A stretch of DNA of 64,000 bases from Metallosphaera sedula DSM 5348 (GTDB lineage: Archaea > Thermoproteota > Thermoprotei_A > Sulfolobales > Sulfolobaceae), in contig NC_009440.1 of the NCBI RefSeq assembly GCF_000016605.1, positions 868,001 to 932,000 on the forward strand, given 5' to 3'. The position numbers and the translations under genes are program-made. This document shows positions 1,065 to 9,741 of the stretch, one piece after another (position 1 is the first letter of the stretch; each line of letters starts with the position of its first letter). The notes below the pieces were generated by a model that saw only the letters and a list, made by a program, of their open reading frames with translations, ran no database searches and was not told the origin of the DNA.

Positions 1065-1583
1065 TTACTCTATTTCCATTTCAGAAATTGAGTGGTCCAT
1101 GATATTTAGTAATTGTTTAGTCTTATTCTTCATCAATTCTAAGCACTCGCGACCCCAAGCGCTCAATTCAAATCCTTCGGTATTATTCACTTCGCACTCA
1201 ACTACAGTAACCATATCAGGAAGCACTCCGAGCGAGCTTCCCACCTTAAGGAACGAATTTATATCCATATAATACCCCTTGACATTGGAATATATCTCTA
1301 GCCAAGTTTCCATAGCTCCCTTAGCTATTCTTGGTCTATAGACTCTCAATTCCTGTTTGCCTCTCTTTTCTGCGGCCATTAAAATAAGAGAACCTGGATT
1401 AAGGAACCCTAACTCAGAACTACCCTTTAGTGCACCGAGACTGAGGTCTAGGACATCTATTCCCTCTTTTCTCAGTTCCTCCATTGCCAAGATAGGTATT
1501 GCATAATCCCCTTGGTATAGATATCCCACAGCGGCTACCTTAGGAGGAGGGACTAACCTATTTCCCAATCCATTTAACGTCAA
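1065..1583 (-). CDS. Divergent hydrogenase-maturation-protease-like protein
   Basis: The 172-residue product matches the layout of HyaD/HycI-type endopeptidases that trim the C-terminus of [NiFe] hydrogenase large subunits. It has an N-terminal strand-loop VAAVGYLYQGDYA (family: G-N-x-L-x-x-D-E/D-G), a mid strand VLDLSLGAL (family: DGGTxGL), and a late VVECEVNNTEGFELSAWGRE (family: ExxxxxxGLS-E). Two of the three nickel-binding positions look lost: the Glu of the first motif is Tyr, and the His expected in S-L-H-x-V-G is Leu (SFLKVG). It overlaps the upstream gene by 26 nt and lies divergent from the hydrogenase operon. Likely role: a dedicated or altered processing factor for HynL. The family match is by eye. 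Confidence 0.5.
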   Translation of the reverse strand: MTLNGLGNRLVPPPKVAAVGYLYQGDYAIPILAMEELRKEGIDVLDLSLGALKGSSELGFLNPGSLILMAAEKRGKQELRVYRPRIAKGAMETWLEIYSNVKGYYMDINSFLKVGSSLGVLPDMVTVVECEVNNTEGFELSAWGRECLELMKNKTKQLLNIMDHSISEMEIE

Positions 1584-2262
1584 AGGACTTGGTGACCTCC
1601 ATCATCTCTTCTGAGAAGAGTAGATTAAATGCCTTCATGGACATCTCGTCAGCACCCTTTATTACACCTACCTCCATCGTTATTCCCTTTTCTAGAGTTC
1701 TCCTGCTTAACTCCAAGCTCATGTTATCATGCGACCATATGACTCCCATTTCCGCCACTCCTTCGTAAATTGCTCTCGGTATCTCCCTGTAATCCTTTGC
1801 TATTATTACGTCCACGCTATCTTGGCATTTCCTTTTGATGTAATCAATTCCTACTTTTCCTAGAACATAATACTCTGGGTCAGGAATCATGAACTTCCCA
1901 CATTTTTCAACATGTTTAAACACAAGTGCAGGTTTCACTTCCATGAAGGTTTTCCTAACAAGCAAGATATCCCATTCCTTGAGCACCTTCATATCCACAG
2001 AGGGGAGGGACACCATAGTGGGGCTTTTATCCAGTACCAGTCTTCCAATAGATATCTTCTCGTTGAGAATCTGTCGAAGCAATATTCCTGAGGGGAAACA
2101 TTCTATGAATGCCTTCACATAGTTGCGTTTTAAAATATCAAGATATTTATCCATGAATGGATGGAAAAATGAATCAAATAATATAACAGCTCTAGCCCCA
2201 ATCTCACCCGCTATATCAGAGAGTCTATTCCATTCTGATGTCACGTCCATTATAAGGCCCAT
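1558..2262 (-). CDS. Cytoplasmic solute-binding-protein-like protein, hydrogenase-linked
   Basis: A 234-residue protein with no signal peptide or membrane span. The alternation of short beta strands and helices, and the late block VDVIIAKDYREIPRAIYEG followed by AEMGVIWSHD, resemble the second lobe of type-2 periplasmic-binding proteins of the molybdate/tungstate (ModA) kind. With no export signal it would act inside the cell, perhaps as a sensor or metal/anion carrier. It is the first gene of the minus-strand pair facing hynS. Because it shares a locus with a protease-like gene, a role in hydrogenase maturation or regulation is plausible but inferred. Confidence 0.4.
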   Translation of the reverse strand: MGLIMDVTSEWNRLSDIAGEIGARAVILFDSFFHPFMDKYLDILKRNYVKAFIECFPSGILLRQILNEKISIGRLVLDKSPTMVSLPSVDMKVLKEWDILLVRKTFMEVKPALVFKHVEKCGKFMIPDPEYYVLGKVGIDYIKRKCQDSVDVIIAKDYREIPRAIYEGVAEMGVIWSHDNMSLELSRRTLEKGITMEVGVIKGADEMSMKAFNLLFSEEMMEVTKSFDVKWIGK

Positions 2263-2430: not shown

Positions 2431-3729
2431 ATGGGTCTAACAAGAAGGGACTTCCTAAAAGTTTCGGGCGTGACAGCCCTAGGTACAAGTCTAGCCCTAT
2501 CCGGCCTCTCATACGAAGAACTATTGTCTAAGGCTCAGGAAGCGGATCAACCAATAAACATAGTATGGACGGGTAATGGGTGGTGCGGAGGTAATACTAT
2601 AGCTTTCATAGATGCAATGAACCCATCAGTGGAGGATGTGGTAACAGGAGTGTACTTCAACGGCAAGCCCATAACATTAAGGCAGCCAAGCATTCCGGAT
2701 CTGGGAATGATAAACCTGGTTTATCACCCCATACTAATGCCTCAGGATAACATGGCATATGCAACCATGGAGATGGCATTAAATGGGGAGTTAGATCCAT
2801 TCGTCCTGGTAGTCGAGGGGACTATGTTTGACGAATTCGGCGTTTACTATAAGAAGCCAAGTGGATCCTTCTGGTGTTCAGCGGGAAGGAAACCAGACGG
2901 AAGCGTTCTGCTATGCGACGAGTTTGTCTTCAATCTTATGAAGAAAGCTGCGGCTGTAGTAGCAACTGGGGCTTGCGCTACTTATGGTGGAATTCCAGCT
3001 ACTACAAATGGGTTAGGGCAGAGAAGTCCCACATATGCCATGGGAATGCTTGACGACCCGTACAGAGGGATCTATGGCTTTCCATACTATGTTCACCAAG
3101 TTTATACACAGGATTTAGCACCAGATATAATCGACCAAGACATATACTCAGTCACGAATTCCCCAGTTAACACTTCTTGGCCTGGGCCCAGCTATCACTG
3201 GCTTTCTACCGCGGGTCTACCAATAATTTCCATAGCTGCAGATCCTCCTGCCGGAGATTGGATTATGCGTACACTTGTCTCCGCAGTGCTTTATCTGAGA
3301 GGTTTAGGTCCTAATCCTGCCGATGATCTTGACGTGTTCAATAGACCAAAATTCTTCTATGGAAATGAGACCCATCAGAACTGCCCTAGGGCGGGATTCT
3401 TCGCACAGGGCATTTTTGCCTATGAATTTGGAGACCCTCAATGCACATACAGCCTTGGGTGTAAGGGTACTGAGGCCAATAGCCCAGCACCTCTACTAGG
3501 ATGGGTGGGTGGAGTTGGCGGATGTACTAGAGGCGGTGTATGTATCGCATGTACTGCTCCAGGATTTCCAGATCTATATGAACCATTCTATGCTCCACCA
3601 AACGCTCCCACAATTCCTAGTACTACGTTGTTCGCAGCTGCAGCAGCCGCAGGTATAATAGTAGGTGTGGGTAGTTATGCCTTCTCTAGGAGGAAGAGGC
3701 TACCTCAGATGCAAGGAGGCAAGAGGTGA
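2431..3729 (+). CDS. hynS: [NiFe] hydrogenase small subunit, Tat-exported, membrane-anchored
   Basis: The electron-transfer subunit of a group 1 uptake hydrogenase. It starts with a twin-arginine signal (TRRDFLK, residues 4-10) and ends with a membrane helix near 399-418 and a basic tail, so it is exported and anchored. Distal-cluster residues are present (His315, Cys318, Cys338, Cys344), and medial-cluster cysteines are 365, 371 and 374. The proximal site is unusual: the canonical C-x-G-C reads CGGN (Cys52, Asn55), Cys182 in GACATYGG is kept, and the fourth ligand, normally in GCP, is Asp271 in AADPP. Start ATG 2431 is preferred to in-frame GTG 2422 from promoter spacing and signal-peptide length. 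The stop overlaps the hynL GTG alternative. Confidence 0.92.
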   Translation: MGLTRRDFLKVSGVTALGTSLALSGLSYEELLSKAQEADQPINIVWTGNGWCGGNTIAFIDAMNPSVEDVVTGVYFNGKPITLRQPSIPDLGMINLVYHPILMPQDNMAYATMEMALNGELDPFVLVVEGTMFDEFGVYYKKPSGSFWCSAGRKPDGSVLLCDEFVFNLMKKAAAVVATGACATYGGIPATTNGLGQRSPTYAMGMLDDPYRGIYGFPYYVHQVYTQDLAPDIIDQDIYSVTNSPVNTSWPGPSYHWLSTAGLPIISIAADPPAGDWIMRTLVSAVLYLRGLGPNPADDLDVFNRPKFFYGNETHQNCPRAGFFAQGIFAYEFGDPQCTYSLGCKGTEANSPAPLLGWVGGVGGCTRGGVCIACTAPGFPDLYEPFYAPPNAPTIPSTTLFAAAAAAGIIVGVGSYAFSRRKRLPQMQGGKR

Positions 3730-3734
3730 GAGAT

Positions 3735-5972
3735 ATGGCAAGTAGTTCACCATATTATTTCACGTTTGATTGGACTAAACCAGTTCTCATAGAACCCATA
3801 GTGAGGATAAAGCCTGAGTTGGGAATACAAGTCACCTACGACTCCTCTAGTAACAGGGTTACGGACGCCTATGCAGCAGCAGGTATGTTCAGAGGTTTCG
3901 AGATATTCATGAGAAATAAGCCAGGACCAGACGTCATAATGCTTTCCAGTAGGGAGTGTGGAATATGTGGAGAACATCACCAATTCATTGAAAGAATTGC
4001 ACAGGAAATGGCTCAGGGCGGTAACGCTCCTCCACCATTAGGTCTTGAAACCATTATCCTGGCTAATGACGCAGCTATGACCTACGATGCCACAGCCCAT
4101 CTTACAGCTTTAGGAGGACCAGACTGGAGCTCCCTATTCTTCAAGGTTGCTGGGTATTTCCCAAGCCAAATTTACGAAATAGCTCAGCAGACACCTCTGA
4201 GTAAAGTGGCGCAAGAGTCTCAGGCATTCCCAATGGGCGCACCAACGCAACTGGAAATGGCCGGCGTCAAATTGAAGACTGTTTCGGATCTCATGGATGC
4301 GTTAGTTCCAATAATTGGCGCCTACTTCCTTGAGGGAGCCTATTCGTGGAGAATACTTCACGAGGCTGAATTGCTGTACTATCTCAGAGTACCTCATCCG
4401 ATAACAATGGTACCTGGAGGAATTGGTGTACCTGCCACTGTGGAGAACCTACAAAGATATTTCCAACGGATGGTTGACGGAACGGCTTGGTTAATGAAAC
4501 AGATGGCCGTCTATGAATATTTGACATTATTCCTTGCAGATTATAATAATACGTTCGGAATCCAGGCTCTATATGACAAATTGAATGGGACTCTTGGATT
4601 TGCTGAGGAGGGAAACAGACCTGGAAACTTCGTCTCCTATGGCCAGAGCGACGTTTCAGAAGCTCCCTCAGTTACGCCATCCAGTACATCGGTGATGCCT
4701 TATGATGGTACCTATGAGAATATGGGCGCTTGGGGTAGGGCTAGGGTCGTGAAACCAGGACTGGTTATTCAACCCAATTCCAATTCTCCTCCACAGCTTG
4801 TCACCAATAGCCTTATTGACATAAATCTCGGAATAAGGGAGTTCGTGGAGTCCTCTTTCTACACGCCGTGGTACGAAAATGGATCCTTCAATAGTGAAGT
4901 TCCGTCCTCAGTGAGCGGAATAGAGGAAGATCCAATCGGAAATAAGGTTAGTTACTACCATCCATGGAGAAAGTGGACTATGCCTAACCCGCAGCCTAGA
5001 CCGGTTCCAATGGCCTATCCTGCACCCTATTCATGGGCGGTTTCACCTAGAATAGTTCCGTACCAGAATCACAAACCAATTACCAATCTCTTCTACAACG
5101 TTGAAGCGGATCCCATGGCCGTGATGTATGCTCAAGTTCTTCAGCCACAGGCCCCTACCCCCATATATACTTCCAGCTATCCCTCAGGCTTTGAAGTCTC
5201 ATACAACAGCAACGAGATGAGTGCTACCTTCTACTTGCCCACTGTGAACAGTCCAAGGATATCACTGCCTCCTGAATTTCAGCAGGGGAGCGAAATAGAG
5301 TTTAAGTATGTGGCACCATACGCGCTTTCCGGTGGAAAGATAGTTACTAATGCCATAGAAAGGATGAGGGCCAGGGCATTTGAGGCGGGTCTAGATGGAA
5401 TGGGAATGTGGATAGCCTGGATGTCCGCTATCACGTACTTGAAGAAGGGTATGACGCAAGTGAGTAGTATGCCTCCATCGAGCTGGACCTACAAGTCCAA
5501 TACTAATACAGGGGTAGCATTAGGTGTGGGAATGAAGGAGGCCCCACGAGGTGCACAGTATCATTCAGAGGTGTTCGCCACTGGAACTGGCGTAAATGTC
5601 CCAGCAATTAACCCGCAACAAATGCAACCAACTACAGTGAACTCTGGTCCAAGGGTGAAGAATTCCTATGACGACGGCATTCAAACAATTAAACCTGCAT
5701 CTCCAACACACGGCGCAGGAACTTTTGAGGAAGTGCTGATGGGGAACCCCGATTATAATATGCCTGGTACTCCTAGGTTAACAGTTATTCCTACGGAGCA
5801 GTGGGATGGCTTCGAGTTTGCCCAAACCCTACGATCATTTGATCCATGTTTTGTATGCGGAGTGCATATGGTATTGCCAAATGGAAGGGCTAGATACATT
5901 ACCCTTGGAGCTCCCGTTGATTTAAGTAATGCGATTAAAGCATTCTACAGGTTTGCCATGAAGGTGAAGTAG
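3735..5972 (+). CDS. hynL: [NiFe] hydrogenase large (catalytic) subunit
   Basis: Carries the Ni-Fe active site that oxidises H2. The N-terminal ligand motif is RECGICGEHH (Cys75, Cys78) and the C-terminal one is SFDPCFVCGVH (Cys705, Cys708, His711). At about 745 residues it is longer than the usual 550-600. After His711 a 34-residue tail remains; in this family the tail is removed by a maturation protease once nickel is in place, and it is typically nearer 15 residues. It has no signal peptide of its own, so it should be exported with HynS through Tat. A GTG at 3726 overlapping the hynS stop is an alternative start. Confidence 0.93.
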   Translation: MASSSPYYFTFDWTKPVLIEPIVRIKPELGIQVTYDSSSNRVTDAYAAAGMFRGFEIFMRNKPGPDVIMLSSRECGICGEHHQFIERIAQEMAQGGNAPPPLGLETIILANDAAMTYDATAHLTALGGPDWSSLFFKVAGYFPSQIYEIAQQTPLSKVAQESQAFPMGAPTQLEMAGVKLKTVSDLMDALVPIIGAYFLEGAYSWRILHEAELLYYLRVPHPITMVPGGIGVPATVENLQRYFQRMVDGTAWLMKQMAVYEYLTLFLADYNNTFGIQALYDKLNGTLGFAEEGNRPGNFVSYGQSDVSEAPSVTPSSTSVMPYDGTYENMGAWGRARVVKPGLVIQPNSNSPPQLVTNSLIDINLGIREFVESSFYTPWYENGSFNSEVPSSVSGIEEDPIGNKVSYYHPWRKWTMPNPQPRPVPMAYPAPYSWAVSPRIVPYQNHKPITNLFYNVEADPMAVMYAQVLQPQAPTPIYTSSYPSGFEVSYNSNEMSATFYLPTVNSPRISLPPEFQQGSEIEFKYVAPYALSGGKIVTNAIERMRARAFEAGLDGMGMWIAWMSAITYLKKGMTQVSSMPPSSWTYKSNTNTGVALGVGMKEAPRGAQYHSEVFATGTGVNVPAINPQQMQPTTVNSGPRVKNSYDDGIQTIKPASPTHGAGTFEEVLMGNPDYNMPGTPRLTVIPTEQWDGFEFAQTLRSFDPCFVCGVHMVLPNGRARYITLGAPVDLSNAIKAFYRFAMKVK

Positions 5973-6851
5973 ATGCTACCAATAGTCCTTGCAATAGGTG
6001 CTTCGCTTAGCTCTGACTCCCTGTATTGGTGGGGACTAAATGTAATCTTCCCATTGGGATTGCTAATATTCGTGTTTGGTGCCATATATAGAATTTCTAG
6101 GTATTTTTGGGGAAGGAGAGTTCCAGCACCTACCATGGCCGGTTTCGGGACACAATTCAAGGAGGGAGTTTCAGCAATTCCCACACCCTTCGGAGCTGCC
6201 GCTAAGAGGGATCCCTTTATCATCGTTGAGACTATATTCTGGCATATTTTCATGTTAGGTGTAGTGGTCATCGTAGGTATACATATCCTAGCATGGAACT
6301 ACATATTTGGTCAGATATTTGGCGTCTCCAATCCGCTATGGTTCCTCTTAAAGATATCCACTCCAGAGCAGTTTACCTCAGCATACCAGCTAGGATTGCT
6401 GGGGAGCAACTCCTACTCGCATGGGGGAATACTAAATCCATTAGGCGCATGGAACTCCGCAGAGGTTTCAACTTCAACATTTGATCCTTGGAGTTTCTTG
6501 GCTGTCTTAGTTAATGGAACAGTAATGGGACTACTTGCCATGGCAGGGATTTTAGGATATTTGGTAACGAGGATAGTAGATGATGTTACTGGGCATAAGA
6601 GGCTGAGCTCATCCGGGGACTATGTGTTCTTGATTCTTCTAGCTGCTATTGTGATCACGGGCCTTGCAGCAATGTACGATTTCCAGGTACCATATCTGGG
6701 TGTGCCAAATCAAGCCAATTGGTACGGATTGCATATTGCGCTGGTCGGAGCATTCATAGGTTACGTTCCATTTAGCAAGGGATGGCATATGTTCGGATAC
6801 TATATTGGAAAGGGAATGAGGGGATACGGATACGGGAGAAAGAGAAAATAG
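5973..6851 (+). CDS. isp1: Isp1-like membrane subunit (cytochrome b type)
   Basis: A 292-residue integral membrane protein starting directly after the hynL stop. There are about five strongly hydrophobic spans. Several histidines lie in or near them (FWHIFMLG, VGIHILAW, WYGLHIAL, KGWHMFGYY), as expected for a b-type haem subunit of the NarI/DsrM/Isp1 kind. The C-terminus is rich in Gly, Tyr and basic residues. Likely role: pass electrons from the exported HynSL across the membrane to quinone or to the cytoplasmic Isp2. The identification rests on topology and gene order as known for Acidianus-type hydrogenases. Confidence 0.75.
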   Translation: MLPIVLAIGASLSSDSLYWWGLNVIFPLGLLIFVFGAIYRISRYFWGRRVPAPTMAGFGTQFKEGVSAIPTPFGAAAKRDPFIIVETIFWHIFMLGVVVIVGIHILAWNYIFGQIFGVSNPLWFLLKISTPEQFTSAYQLGLLGSNSYSHGGILNPLGAWNSAEVSTSTFDPWSFLAVLVNGTVMGLLAMAGILGYLVTRIVDDVTGHKRLSSSGDYVFLILLAAIVITGLAAMYDFQVPYLGVPNQANWYGLHIALVGAFIGYVPFSKGWHMFGYYIGKGMRGYGYGRKRK

Positions 6852-6870: not shown

Positions 6871-8106
6871 GTGGAAGGTAAGAATGTGAAAATGGAGAGA
6901 CGTATGGTATCCAGGGCACTGGATGAACTGTCTCCGTATGATGTATGGGGATTACAGGAATGTATGAGGTGTGGGATATGTAGATATGCATGTCCTTTCT
7001 GGCTGGATTCCCAAAAGGCAACCGATATACCCGCGTGGAGAACGTACGAGGTTAACAAAGTATACTCGATGTATTATACCGGGTATGGGAACGTCGCAAG
7101 ATTATTAAGATTAAGAAGAGTTAAGTCATCAGAATTTCTAAAATGGAGAGAATCGTCCTACAACTGCACAGCTTGCGGGGCATGTACTGATGTTTCTCCG
7201 CTCGAAATACCTAACTGGTACACGGCCATTCTTCTCAGGAGAATGTTACATCTGGCAGGAATGAACCTTGAGGAAGTCGAGGAGTGGGCGAATAATACTA
7301 AGAAACTTGGAAACCCTCTTGGAATTTCCACTGAACAGTGGGAAGAGACAGCTAAATCTGCGGGACTCCCACTGAATGAAAAAGCTGACATCTTGTATGT
7401 ACCGAGTGCTTTGGAATCAAGGGAAGGAGAGATCTTGCAACAGGTAGTTAACTCAATGATAGCTACTGGAGAGAAGTTCACTGCAAGTTCACAGATAAGT
7501 GATGTAGGATACTATTCCTACCTGGCAGGTGATTTCGAGACAGCCCGTGAGCACTTTACCAAGATCTTGGAGGTTGCCAAGCAGGTTGAAGCAAAGAAAA
7601 TAGTGGTCTCGGACGGAGCTGGTCTCTTCTTCCTCAGATGGCAAGCACCCAAGACCTTGGGACATAAAATTGATATACCCATCTATCATCTGACAGAAAT
7701 CATTTATGACGCTTACAAGAAGGGTAAGGTAAAAATAGAAGTTGCGGATTTCAAGGATCAAATTACAGTTCACGATTCAGAGTTCATGAGTAAACTGGGA
7801 GGCGTGGAAAAGCCTCCAAGGGAACTCATGAAAGCCTCAATATTCAATTACAGGGAACCAAAGTTCTCTCCGTCCTCCCATAACCTATTTACCTGCGGTC
7901 ATCACCTAGAGTTAATAAAGGAGAAATCGGATACAGTGAAAAGGGCTAGAGCGTATTCAATAAAGCAACTGGCAAGTTGGGGCGAGTCTGTGGTTACGTT
8001 CGATCCAAACTGCCTACTATCCATGAGGAATGGTATAAGGGACTCACAGGGAATTAAGAACGCGTATTATTATACCAACATCCTAGACAAGGCGATAAAA
8101 AGATGA
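6871..8106 (+). CDS. isp2: Isp2-like iron-sulfur protein (HdrC/HdrB type)
   Basis: A 411-residue cytoplasmic iron-sulfur protein related to heterodisulfide-reductase subunits. Cluster 1 is complete: Cys31, Cys34, Cys37 and Cys41 in CMRCGICRYACP. The second ferredoxin-like motif reads CTACGACTDVSP, so the expected fourth Cys is Ser. The C-terminal half carries only remnants of CCG motifs (FTCGHHLEL, FDPNCLLSM). It probably takes electrons from the cytochrome b subunit to an intracellular acceptor. Start is GTG at 6871 (ATG at 6892 also possible), 19 nt after isp1. Its stop overlaps the next gene as ATGA. Confidence 0.8.
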   Translation: MEGKNVKMERRMVSRALDELSPYDVWGLQECMRCGICRYACPFWLDSQKATDIPAWRTYEVNKVYSMYYTGYGNVARLLRLRRVKSSEFLKWRESSYNCTACGACTDVSPLEIPNWYTAILLRRMLHLAGMNLEEVEEWANNTKKLGNPLGISTEQWEETAKSAGLPLNEKADILYVPSALESREGEILQQVVNSMIATGEKFTASSQISDVGYYSYLAGDFETAREHFTKILEVAKQVEAKKIVVSDGAGLFFLRWQAPKTLGHKIDIPIYHLTEIIYDAYKKGKVKIEVADFKDQITVHDSEFMSKLGGVEKPPRELMKASIFNYREPKFSPSSHNLFTCGHHLELIKEKSDTVKRARAYSIKQLASWGESVVTFDPNCLLSMRNGIRDSQGIKNAYYYTNILDKAIKR

Positions 8107-8979: not shown

Positions 8980-9741
8980 TTGTCTGTGCACAGTTTAAAG
9001 GGTGGAGTAGGTAAATCGGTAATAGCTATATCTCTGGCTAAGATCTTGGCCTCAAGGGGCCATCAAGTACTTTTCGTTGATAAAGATATTGCAGGATATG
9101 CATCCTACTTGGCGGGCATCGACGGTCCAGGTCTTATTGAAAGTTTGATAAGCCCAATGAGCATGGATGTGATGAGGGAAGTATACACAGAAAACGGAGG
9201 CATTGCAATATTAAAATACCCTGGAGACGGACCAAGGTACGGAGTTGATCTCGAGATAATCCATCGTGACAGTGAGTTAAAGGAAAGGTGGAGGAAATAT
9301 TGTAACATTTTCCTATCTGGAAAGAAATACTCTTTTTTTATACTGGATAATCCACCTGCGGTAATACCAGATGAGGAAATAAAATACATGACGAAACAGG
9401 TCAGAGTAGGGCTATCTCAAATTTCAATGAAATGTATAGTTGTCTCCGATAGTATAGCTGATACAATAAGTAACAGCGTAACTTATGCCAAGCTGTTGGC
9501 ATCTAAGGGTTATGAGATTTTAGCATTTGTAATAAACATGATTAAACCGTATGACATGCTTTCCTATCGGAGTAGGATAGAGGAAATTATGTTAGAACTA
9601 AACTGCAAACTTGGAGTGCTTATAGCCTTCCAGGAAGAACTATTCCAATTTAGCGGCGAAATTAAGGACTTTCCAGTACCTCAACAATTGGAGGAGTTTG
9701 TTTCCAAGATGGAAAGAGGAGAGTCGGGTATAATAACTTAG
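8980..9741 (+). CDS. ParA/MinD-like ATPase (paralog A), end of hydrogenase operon
   Basis: A SIMIBI-class P-loop ATPase with a deviant Walker A, KGGVGKS, near the N-terminus and a Walker B-like strand FFILDNPP. Family relatives place proteins or DNA (ParA, MinD), insert nickel (CooC) or carry iron-sulfur clusters (Mrp/Nbp35). No CxC metal motif is visible. It shares GYASYLAGI-GPGL and the C-terminal EELFQFSG-I-DFPVPQQ with paralog B (14521-15291), and more weakly with paralog C (41053-41844). The start is TTG at 8980; paralog alignment also allows CTG at 8971. The Thr after the P-loop Ser is Val here (GKSV). Confidence 0.8.
   Translation: MSVHSLKGGVGKSVIAISLAKILASRGHQVLFVDKDIAGYASYLAGIDGPGLIESLISPMSMDVMREVYTENGGIAILKYPGDGPRYGVDLEIIHRDSELKERWRKYCNIFLSGKKYSFFILDNPPAVIPDEEIKYMTKQVRVGLSQISMKCIVVSDSIADTISNSVTYAKLLASKGYEILAFVINMIKPYDMLSYRSRIEEIMLELNCKLGVLIAFQEELFQFSGEIKDFPVPQQLEEFVSKMERGESGIIT

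What the first reader, a model, noticed from the sequence alone, without database searches (positions are those of the whole stretch)
2431..3729. Hydrogenase small subunit with altered proximal cluster ligands
Canonical small subunits bind the proximal [4Fe-4S] with four Cys: two in C-x-G-C, one in G-x-C-A, one in G-C-P. Here the first motif is CGGN (Asn55) and the last is AADPP (Asp271), leaving Cys52 and Cys182. A one-Asp/three-Cys proximal cluster is known in actinobacterial-type oxygen-tolerant hydrogenases; a two-Cys set with Asn and Asp would be different again and could tune potential or oxygen tolerance. The medial site has three Cys (365, 371, 374).
Basis: partly seen in the sequence, partly recalled or inferred. 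Interest (0 to 1): 0.72.

Follow-up and report, generated by a model that had tools for sequence, protein, structure and literature searches.

The report
Archaeal hydrogenase with altered proximal-cluster ligands
This gene encodes the electron-relay subunit of an aerobic archaeal hydrogen-oxidising enzyme in which the iron-sulfur cluster next to the active site has lost two of its four usual cysteine anchors; one loss is common in related enzymes, but the other (cysteine to aspartate) was found only in this enzyme lineage, so it may be another natural way of tuning a hydrogenase to work in air.

Summary
ORF 2431-3729 is the small subunit of the 'SUL2' (Hsu2) [NiFe]-hydrogenase described in Sulfolobales in 2024. 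Mapped onto the crystallised C. necator HoxK, Cys52, Asn55, Cys182 and Asp271 sit at proximal ligands C17, C20, C115 and C149. The two substitutions differ in weight. Non-Cys at ligand 2 is common: Asn in groups 1g, 2e and in Huc (solved; [3Fe-4S] proximal cluster), Asp in group 1h. Asp at ligand 4 is unusual: 9 of 9 SUL2 sequences, 0 of 85 other small subunits surveyed. Cys149 aligns with HoxK Cys88, not a ligand. Cys162 is shared with most non-Sulfolobales group 1g enzymes and remains a possible substitute ligand or disulfide partner. The medial site is also altered: the first canonical Cys is gone and Cys365 occupies the usual Pro position. The large subunit keeps its Ni-Fe cysteines, and SUL2 was reported in active gel bands of A. 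brierleyi, so a proximal cluster is probably present. Most likely it is held by Cys52, Cys182 and Asp271 with the Asn55 corner open or O-ligated. This is a new variant of a known kind; cluster type and ligands are unproven.

The parts
2431..3729 (+). SUL2 (Hsu2) [NiFe]-hydrogenase small subunit, 432 aa, Tat signal at the N terminus, hydrophobic C-terminal segment
   Evidence: order small-large-Isp1-Isp2 as described for SUL2 in PMC11018855
2584..2586 (+). Cys52, canonical proximal ligand 1 (HoxK C17)
   Evidence: invariant in the 94-sequence survey
2593..2595 (+). Asn55 in place of proximal ligand 2 (HoxK C20; HofK D47; Huc Asn)
   Evidence: 9/9 SUL2, also group 1g and 2e
2815..2817 (+). Glu129, aligned with HoxK/Hyd-1 Glu76, a carboxylate that can ligate the proximal cluster in superoxidised Hyd-1; possible O-ligand
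   Evidence: PMC5811149
2875..2877 (+). Cys149, aligned with HoxK C88, which is not one of HoxK's six cluster cysteines
2914..2916 (+). Cys162, candidate substitute ligand or disulfide partner of Cys149
   Evidence: 57 of 94 sequences have it, all with Cys149; 56 of these 57 lack Cys at position 55
2974..2976 (+). Cys182, canonical proximal ligand 3 (HoxK C115)
3241..3243 (+). Asp271 in place of proximal ligand 4 (HoxK C149), in AADPP instead of PGCPP
   Evidence: 9/9 SUL2, 0/85 others
3373..3462 (+). Distal-cluster ligands His315, Cys318, Cys338, Cys344 (canonical set)
   Evidence: align with HoxK H187, C190, C215, C221
3481..3552 (+). Medial-cluster region: Ser351/Ala353 where the first canonical Cys is missing; Cys365 at the HoxK Pro242 position; Cys371, Cys374
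3726..5972 (+). Large (catalytic) subunit, 748 aa; RECGIC...H and DPCFVCGVH Ni-Fe motifs intact; RIKPEL replaces RIEGHL
5973..6851 (+). Isp1-like membrane cytochrome b (TmcC/HmcE-like)
   Evidence: PMC11018855
6871..8106 (+). Isp2-like iron-sulfur protein (DsrK-like)
   Evidence: PMC11018855

Best explanation
The small subunit belongs to the SUL2 aerobic H2-uptake hydrogenase, whose proximal cluster has a lineage-specific ligand set. Shown: two of four canonical ligand positions carry Cys (52, 182), the third is Asn55 as in Huc and group 1g, the fourth is Asp271; all are fixed under strong purifying selection; the rest of the enzyme looks intact. Inferred: the cluster is still built, because the gap from the active site to the medial cluster would otherwise be too long for electron transfer. 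It is held by Cys52, Cys182 and Asp271, leaving the Asn55 corner either without iron ([3Fe-4S]-like, as in Huc) or with an iron held by a non-thiolate (Glu129, Asn55, water). Inferred effect: hard O-ligation and/or loss of one iron raises the reduction potential, favouring H2 uptake towards quinone and resistance to O2, in line with H2 oxidation in air.
For: Residue map to HoxK, HofK and Huc. D271 in 9/9 SUL2 and 0/85 others, with all 85 keeping Cys there. Strong purifying selection with synonymous codon swaps at the ligands; synonymous sites largely saturated, dN at most about 0.23. SUL2 is one clade, SH-aLRT 100. Large subunit keeps both Ni-Fe Cys pairs. Huc has the same C-x-G-N loop and a [3Fe-4S] proximal cluster by cryo-EM and EPR (PMC10017518). 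SUL2 subunits predominate in hydrogenase-active gel bands of A. brierleyi, and M. sedula oxidises atmospheric H2 with SUL2 and 2e as its only hydrogenases (PMC11018855; both found here). Asp at another proximal ligand position occurs in group 1h (HofK D47; the 3Cys/1Asp cluster itself is from my own knowledge).
Against: No structure: the only AlphaFold model obtained had mean pLDDT 28 and is unusable. Cys162 (and Cys149) are invariant in SUL2 and could supply a third thiolate. A stable cluster on two thiolates would be rare. That the potential is raised, and that this matters for O2 or affinity, is not measured. A. brierleyi's own SUL2 sequence was not examined here.
Confidence: 0.5

Rival explanations
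1. Ligand migration: Cys162 (less likely Cys149), in the loop after the 'EG' strand, provides a replacement thiolate, so the cluster has three Cys (52, 162, 182) plus Asp271, a [4Fe-4S] cluster of 3Cys/1Asp type.
For: Cys162 is invariant in SUL2 and present in 48 other sequences, nearly all group 1g; 56 of 57 carriers lack Cys at position 55, whereas 12 of 37 non-carriers keep it. The adjoining Glu76 of Hyd-1/HoxK (Glu129 here) touches the proximal cluster (PMC5811149), so this loop starts at the cluster.
Against: One group 1g-like sequence (L117) has Cys55 and Cys162 together; Sulfolobales group 1g (6 sequences) has Asn55 without Cys162; the association is confounded by shared ancestry. Cys162 is never found without Cys149, which fits a disulfide. 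No structural distance could be obtained.
Confidence: 0.3
2. Cys149 and Cys162 form a structural disulfide in the exported enzyme and have nothing to do with the cluster; only Asn55 and Asp271 matter. (Compatible with the best explanation rather than exclusive of it.)
For: 57 of 57 Cys162 carriers also have Cys149, 9 sequences have Cys149 alone, none Cys162 alone; SUL2 carries a Tat signal.
Against: Sulfolobales group 1g enzymes with a twin-arginine N terminus lack both.
Confidence: 0.35
3. The proximal cluster has been lost or the gene is decaying.
For: Two canonical ligands are missing.
Against: Nine orthologues are under strong purifying selection, the partner subunits are intact and co-conserved, and SUL2 is reported as the dominant hydrogenase protein in active gel bands (PMC11018855).
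Confidence: 0.04

Closest known systems
SUL2 / Hsu2 [NiFe]-hydrogenase of Sulfolobales (Leung et al. 2024, PMC11018855)
   Same: Gene order small-large-isp1-isp2; Sulfolobales only; M. sedula stated to carry SUL2 and group 2e
   Different: Nothing: this is a member. The main text does not discuss proximal ligands; its Supplemental Note 1 could not be read here
Group 1g (crenarchaeal Isp-type) hydrogenases
   Same: C-x-G-N loop, Isp1/Isp2 partners; Cys149 and Cys162 in most non-Sulfolobales members
   Different: Keep Cys at ligand 4 and the canonical first medial Cys, with Pro at the Cys365 position in most; isp genes lie between the subunit genes
Group 1h actinobacterial-type (HofK, PDB 5AA5)
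   Same: One carboxylate at a proximal ligand; Cys at the Cys365 position; large-subunit motif lacking the usual Glu (RIVGSL)
   Different: Asp at ligand 2, Cys at ligand 4; four medial Cys; no Cys162
Huc, group 2a (PDB 7UUR/7UTD) and archaeal group 2e
   Same: C-x-G-N loop with Asn at ligand 2; [3Fe-4S] proximal cluster demonstrated in Huc
   Different: Three proximal Cys kept, including ligand 4; different partners

Membership tests
SUL2 [NiFe]-hydrogenase | Small and large genes immediately followed by isp1 and isp2 | tested here: met
SUL2 [NiFe]-hydrogenase | Distinct clade confined to Sulfolobales | tested here: met
   One clade, SH-aLRT 100; found only in the window's own family among the Thermoproteota genomes searched. 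Large-subunit tree not rebuilt
Group 1g | Isp genes between small and large genes; clusters with 1g | tested here: not met
   Gene order differs; SUL2 is a separate long branch outside 1g
Group 1h (3Cys/1Asp proximal cluster) | Asp at ligand 2 with Cys at the other three positions | tested here: not met
   Asn55 and Asp271
Group 2a/2e | Asn at ligand 2 with three proximal Cys | tested here: not met
   Ligand 4 is Asp; separate clade
[NiFe]-hydrogenase catalytic function | Two CxxC Ni-Fe motifs in the partner large subunit | tested here: met
   RECGIC and DPCFVC
Proximal cluster type | Iron content and ligand identity | not testable with these tools
   Needs structure or EPR/Moessbauer; model at pLDDT 28 unusable

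The most novel reading that the evidence does not exclude
An aerobic [NiFe]-hydrogenase runs on a proximal iron-sulfur cluster held by only two cysteines plus Asp271 (and possibly Asn55 or Glu129), together with a medial cluster on a rearranged cysteine set, as a further independent solution to H2 oxidation in air.
Probability: 0.4. Interest if true: 0.72.

Novelty: new variant of a known kind. Interest (0 to 1): 0.52.

Why it matters
Which features let some hydrogenases oxidise H2 in air is an open question. The proximal cluster is remodelled in HoxK/Hyd-1 types ([4Fe-3S]), in 1h (Asp) and in Huc ([3Fe-4S]). SUL2, reported as the main hydrogenase protein of an atmospheric-H2-oxidising archaeon, would add another solution, with single-residue predictions (D271, N55, C162) that can be tested directly.

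Tried and rejected
The idea that C149 and C162 are SUL2-specific compensating cysteines was dropped: both occur in most non-Sulfolobales group 1g enzymes. Asn55 as the novelty was dropped: Huc, 2e and 1g share it. Sequencing error or pseudogene: rejected. Centring a genome search on a bacterial plasmid was not possible, so bacteria are represented by plasmid records only. No held paper discussing SUL2 proximal ligands was found.

Full report
What it is. The window lies in a complete 2,191,517-bp Sulfolobales genome; the size equals my recollection of Metallosphaera sedula DSM 5348. The ORF at 2431-3729 encodes a Tat-exported [NiFe]-hydrogenase small subunit, followed by a large subunit (3726-5972), an Isp1-like membrane cytochrome (5973-6851) and an Isp2-like iron-sulfur protein (6871-8106). 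This small-large-isp1-isp2 order is that of the SUL2 (Hsu2) hydrogenase described by Leung et al. 2024 (PMC11018855), who report that SUL2 and group 2e are the only hydrogenases of M. sedula. The genome search finds the same two.

The observation. Alignment of SUL2 with C. necator HoxK, whose proximal ligands are C17, C20, C115 and C149 (plus C19 and C120 of the special six-Cys cluster), gives C52=C17, N55=C20, C182=C115 and D271=C149 without local gaps. phmmer against solved structures gives the same D271-to-Cys match in 5aa5.

How unusual is each change. I surveyed 94 distinct small subunits of at least 290 aa: Thermoproteota genomes drawn at family, phylum and class level, plus bacterial and haloarchaeal plasmid records. 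Ligand 2 is often not Cys: Asn in 41 group 1g sequences, in group 2e, in Thermus and Sulfobacillus relatives and in Sulfurimonas; Asp in group 1h and part of 1g; Glu in two. Huc, with the same C-x-G-N loop, has a [3Fe-4S] proximal cluster by cryo-EM and EPR (PMC10017518). Ligand 4 is Cys in all 85 non-SUL2 sequences and Asp in all 9 SUL2 sequences. Asp271 is therefore the rare event. The 1h Asp sits at ligand 2 (HofK D47), a different corner.

Selection. Across the nine SUL2 genes synonymous sites are largely saturated while dN is at most about 0.23; all ligand residues are invariant although codons change (N55 AAT/AAC, D271 GAT/GAC, C162 TGC/TGT). 271 of 360 core positions are invariant, so invariance alone is weak evidence for any one residue, but decay and sequencing error are excluded.

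Other cysteines. Cys149 aligns with HoxK C88, which is not among that enzyme's six cluster cysteines, and occurs in many enzymes with four normal ligands. Cys162 occurs in 57 of 94 sequences, always with Cys149; 56 of those 57 lack Cys at position 55, against 25 of 37 without Cys162. One sequence (L117) has both Cys55 and Cys162, and Sulfolobales group 1g has neither Cys149 nor Cys162 while keeping Asn55. This is compatible with Cys162 as a migrated ligand or with a Cys149-Cys162 disulfide, and ancestry confounds it. Glu129 aligns with Glu76 of HoxK and Hyd-1, which can ligate the proximal cluster in superoxidised Hyd-1 (PMC5811149), so an oxygen ligand near the open corner is at hand.

Rest of the relay. 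Distal ligands H315, C318, C338 and C344 are canonical. The medial site lacks the first canonical Cys (S351/A353 where HoxK has C230) and has C365 at HoxK Pro242, then C371 and C374: three Cys, but a different three. The relay is altered at two of three clusters.

Large subunit. Both Ni-Fe motifs are present. The RIEGH motif, whose Glu is a proton-transfer residue in standard enzymes (own knowledge), reads RIKPEL in all SUL2 sequences, RIVGSL in group 1h, and RVAGHL in the one Sulfolobales group 1g large subunit examined.

Phylogeny. With the ligand columns left out, SUL2 forms one clade (SH-aLRT 100) on a long branch outside 1g, 1h/1l and 2a/2e; its sister is unresolved (support 26).

Mechanism. 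Best supported: the cluster is retained and bound by C52, C182 and D271, with the Asn55 corner lacking iron or O-ligated, raising its potential. Shown: the residues, their conservation and an intact partner subunit. From the literature: SUL2 protein predominates in active gel bands of A. brierleyi, and M. sedula consumes atmospheric H2 (PMC11018855). Inferred: coordination, cluster type and effect. The main rival is Cys162 as a third thiolate.

Limits. No usable structure (pLDDT 28). Bacteria are thinly sampled. Supplemental Note 1 of PMC11018855 was not available and may already describe the ligands. A. brierleyi's own SUL2 sequence was not examined.

Noticed in passing
window 3726-5972 (large subunit N terminus): The RIEGH motif, whose Glu is the usual proton-transfer residue, reads RIKPEL in all SUL2 large subunits; group 1h has RIVGSL and the one Sulfolobales 1g large subunit examined has RVAGHL. 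How protons leave the active site in these enzymes is unclear.
   Followed up: partly
window 3481-3552: Medial-cluster cysteine set is rearranged: first canonical Cys lost, Cys365 gained at the Pro position.
   Followed up: partly
L117: A group 1g-like small subunit on a very long branch, in a genome with another 1g-like copy (L115, CAGE loop), carrying Cys at ligand 2 together with Cys149 and Cys162.
   Followed up: no
window 8980-9741: ParA/MinD/Mrp-like P-loop NTPase after the hydrogenase genes; among the loci compared it was found only in L005 (M. javensis, 53% identity), so not a general SUL2 partner.
   Followed up: partly
window 1065-2262 (- strand): Two small ORFs without Pfam or NCBIfam match, divergent from the hydrogenase operon. 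The 172-aa one recurs near SUL2 in four of the compared loci; the 234-aa one only in the two other Metallosphaera loci.
   Followed up: no
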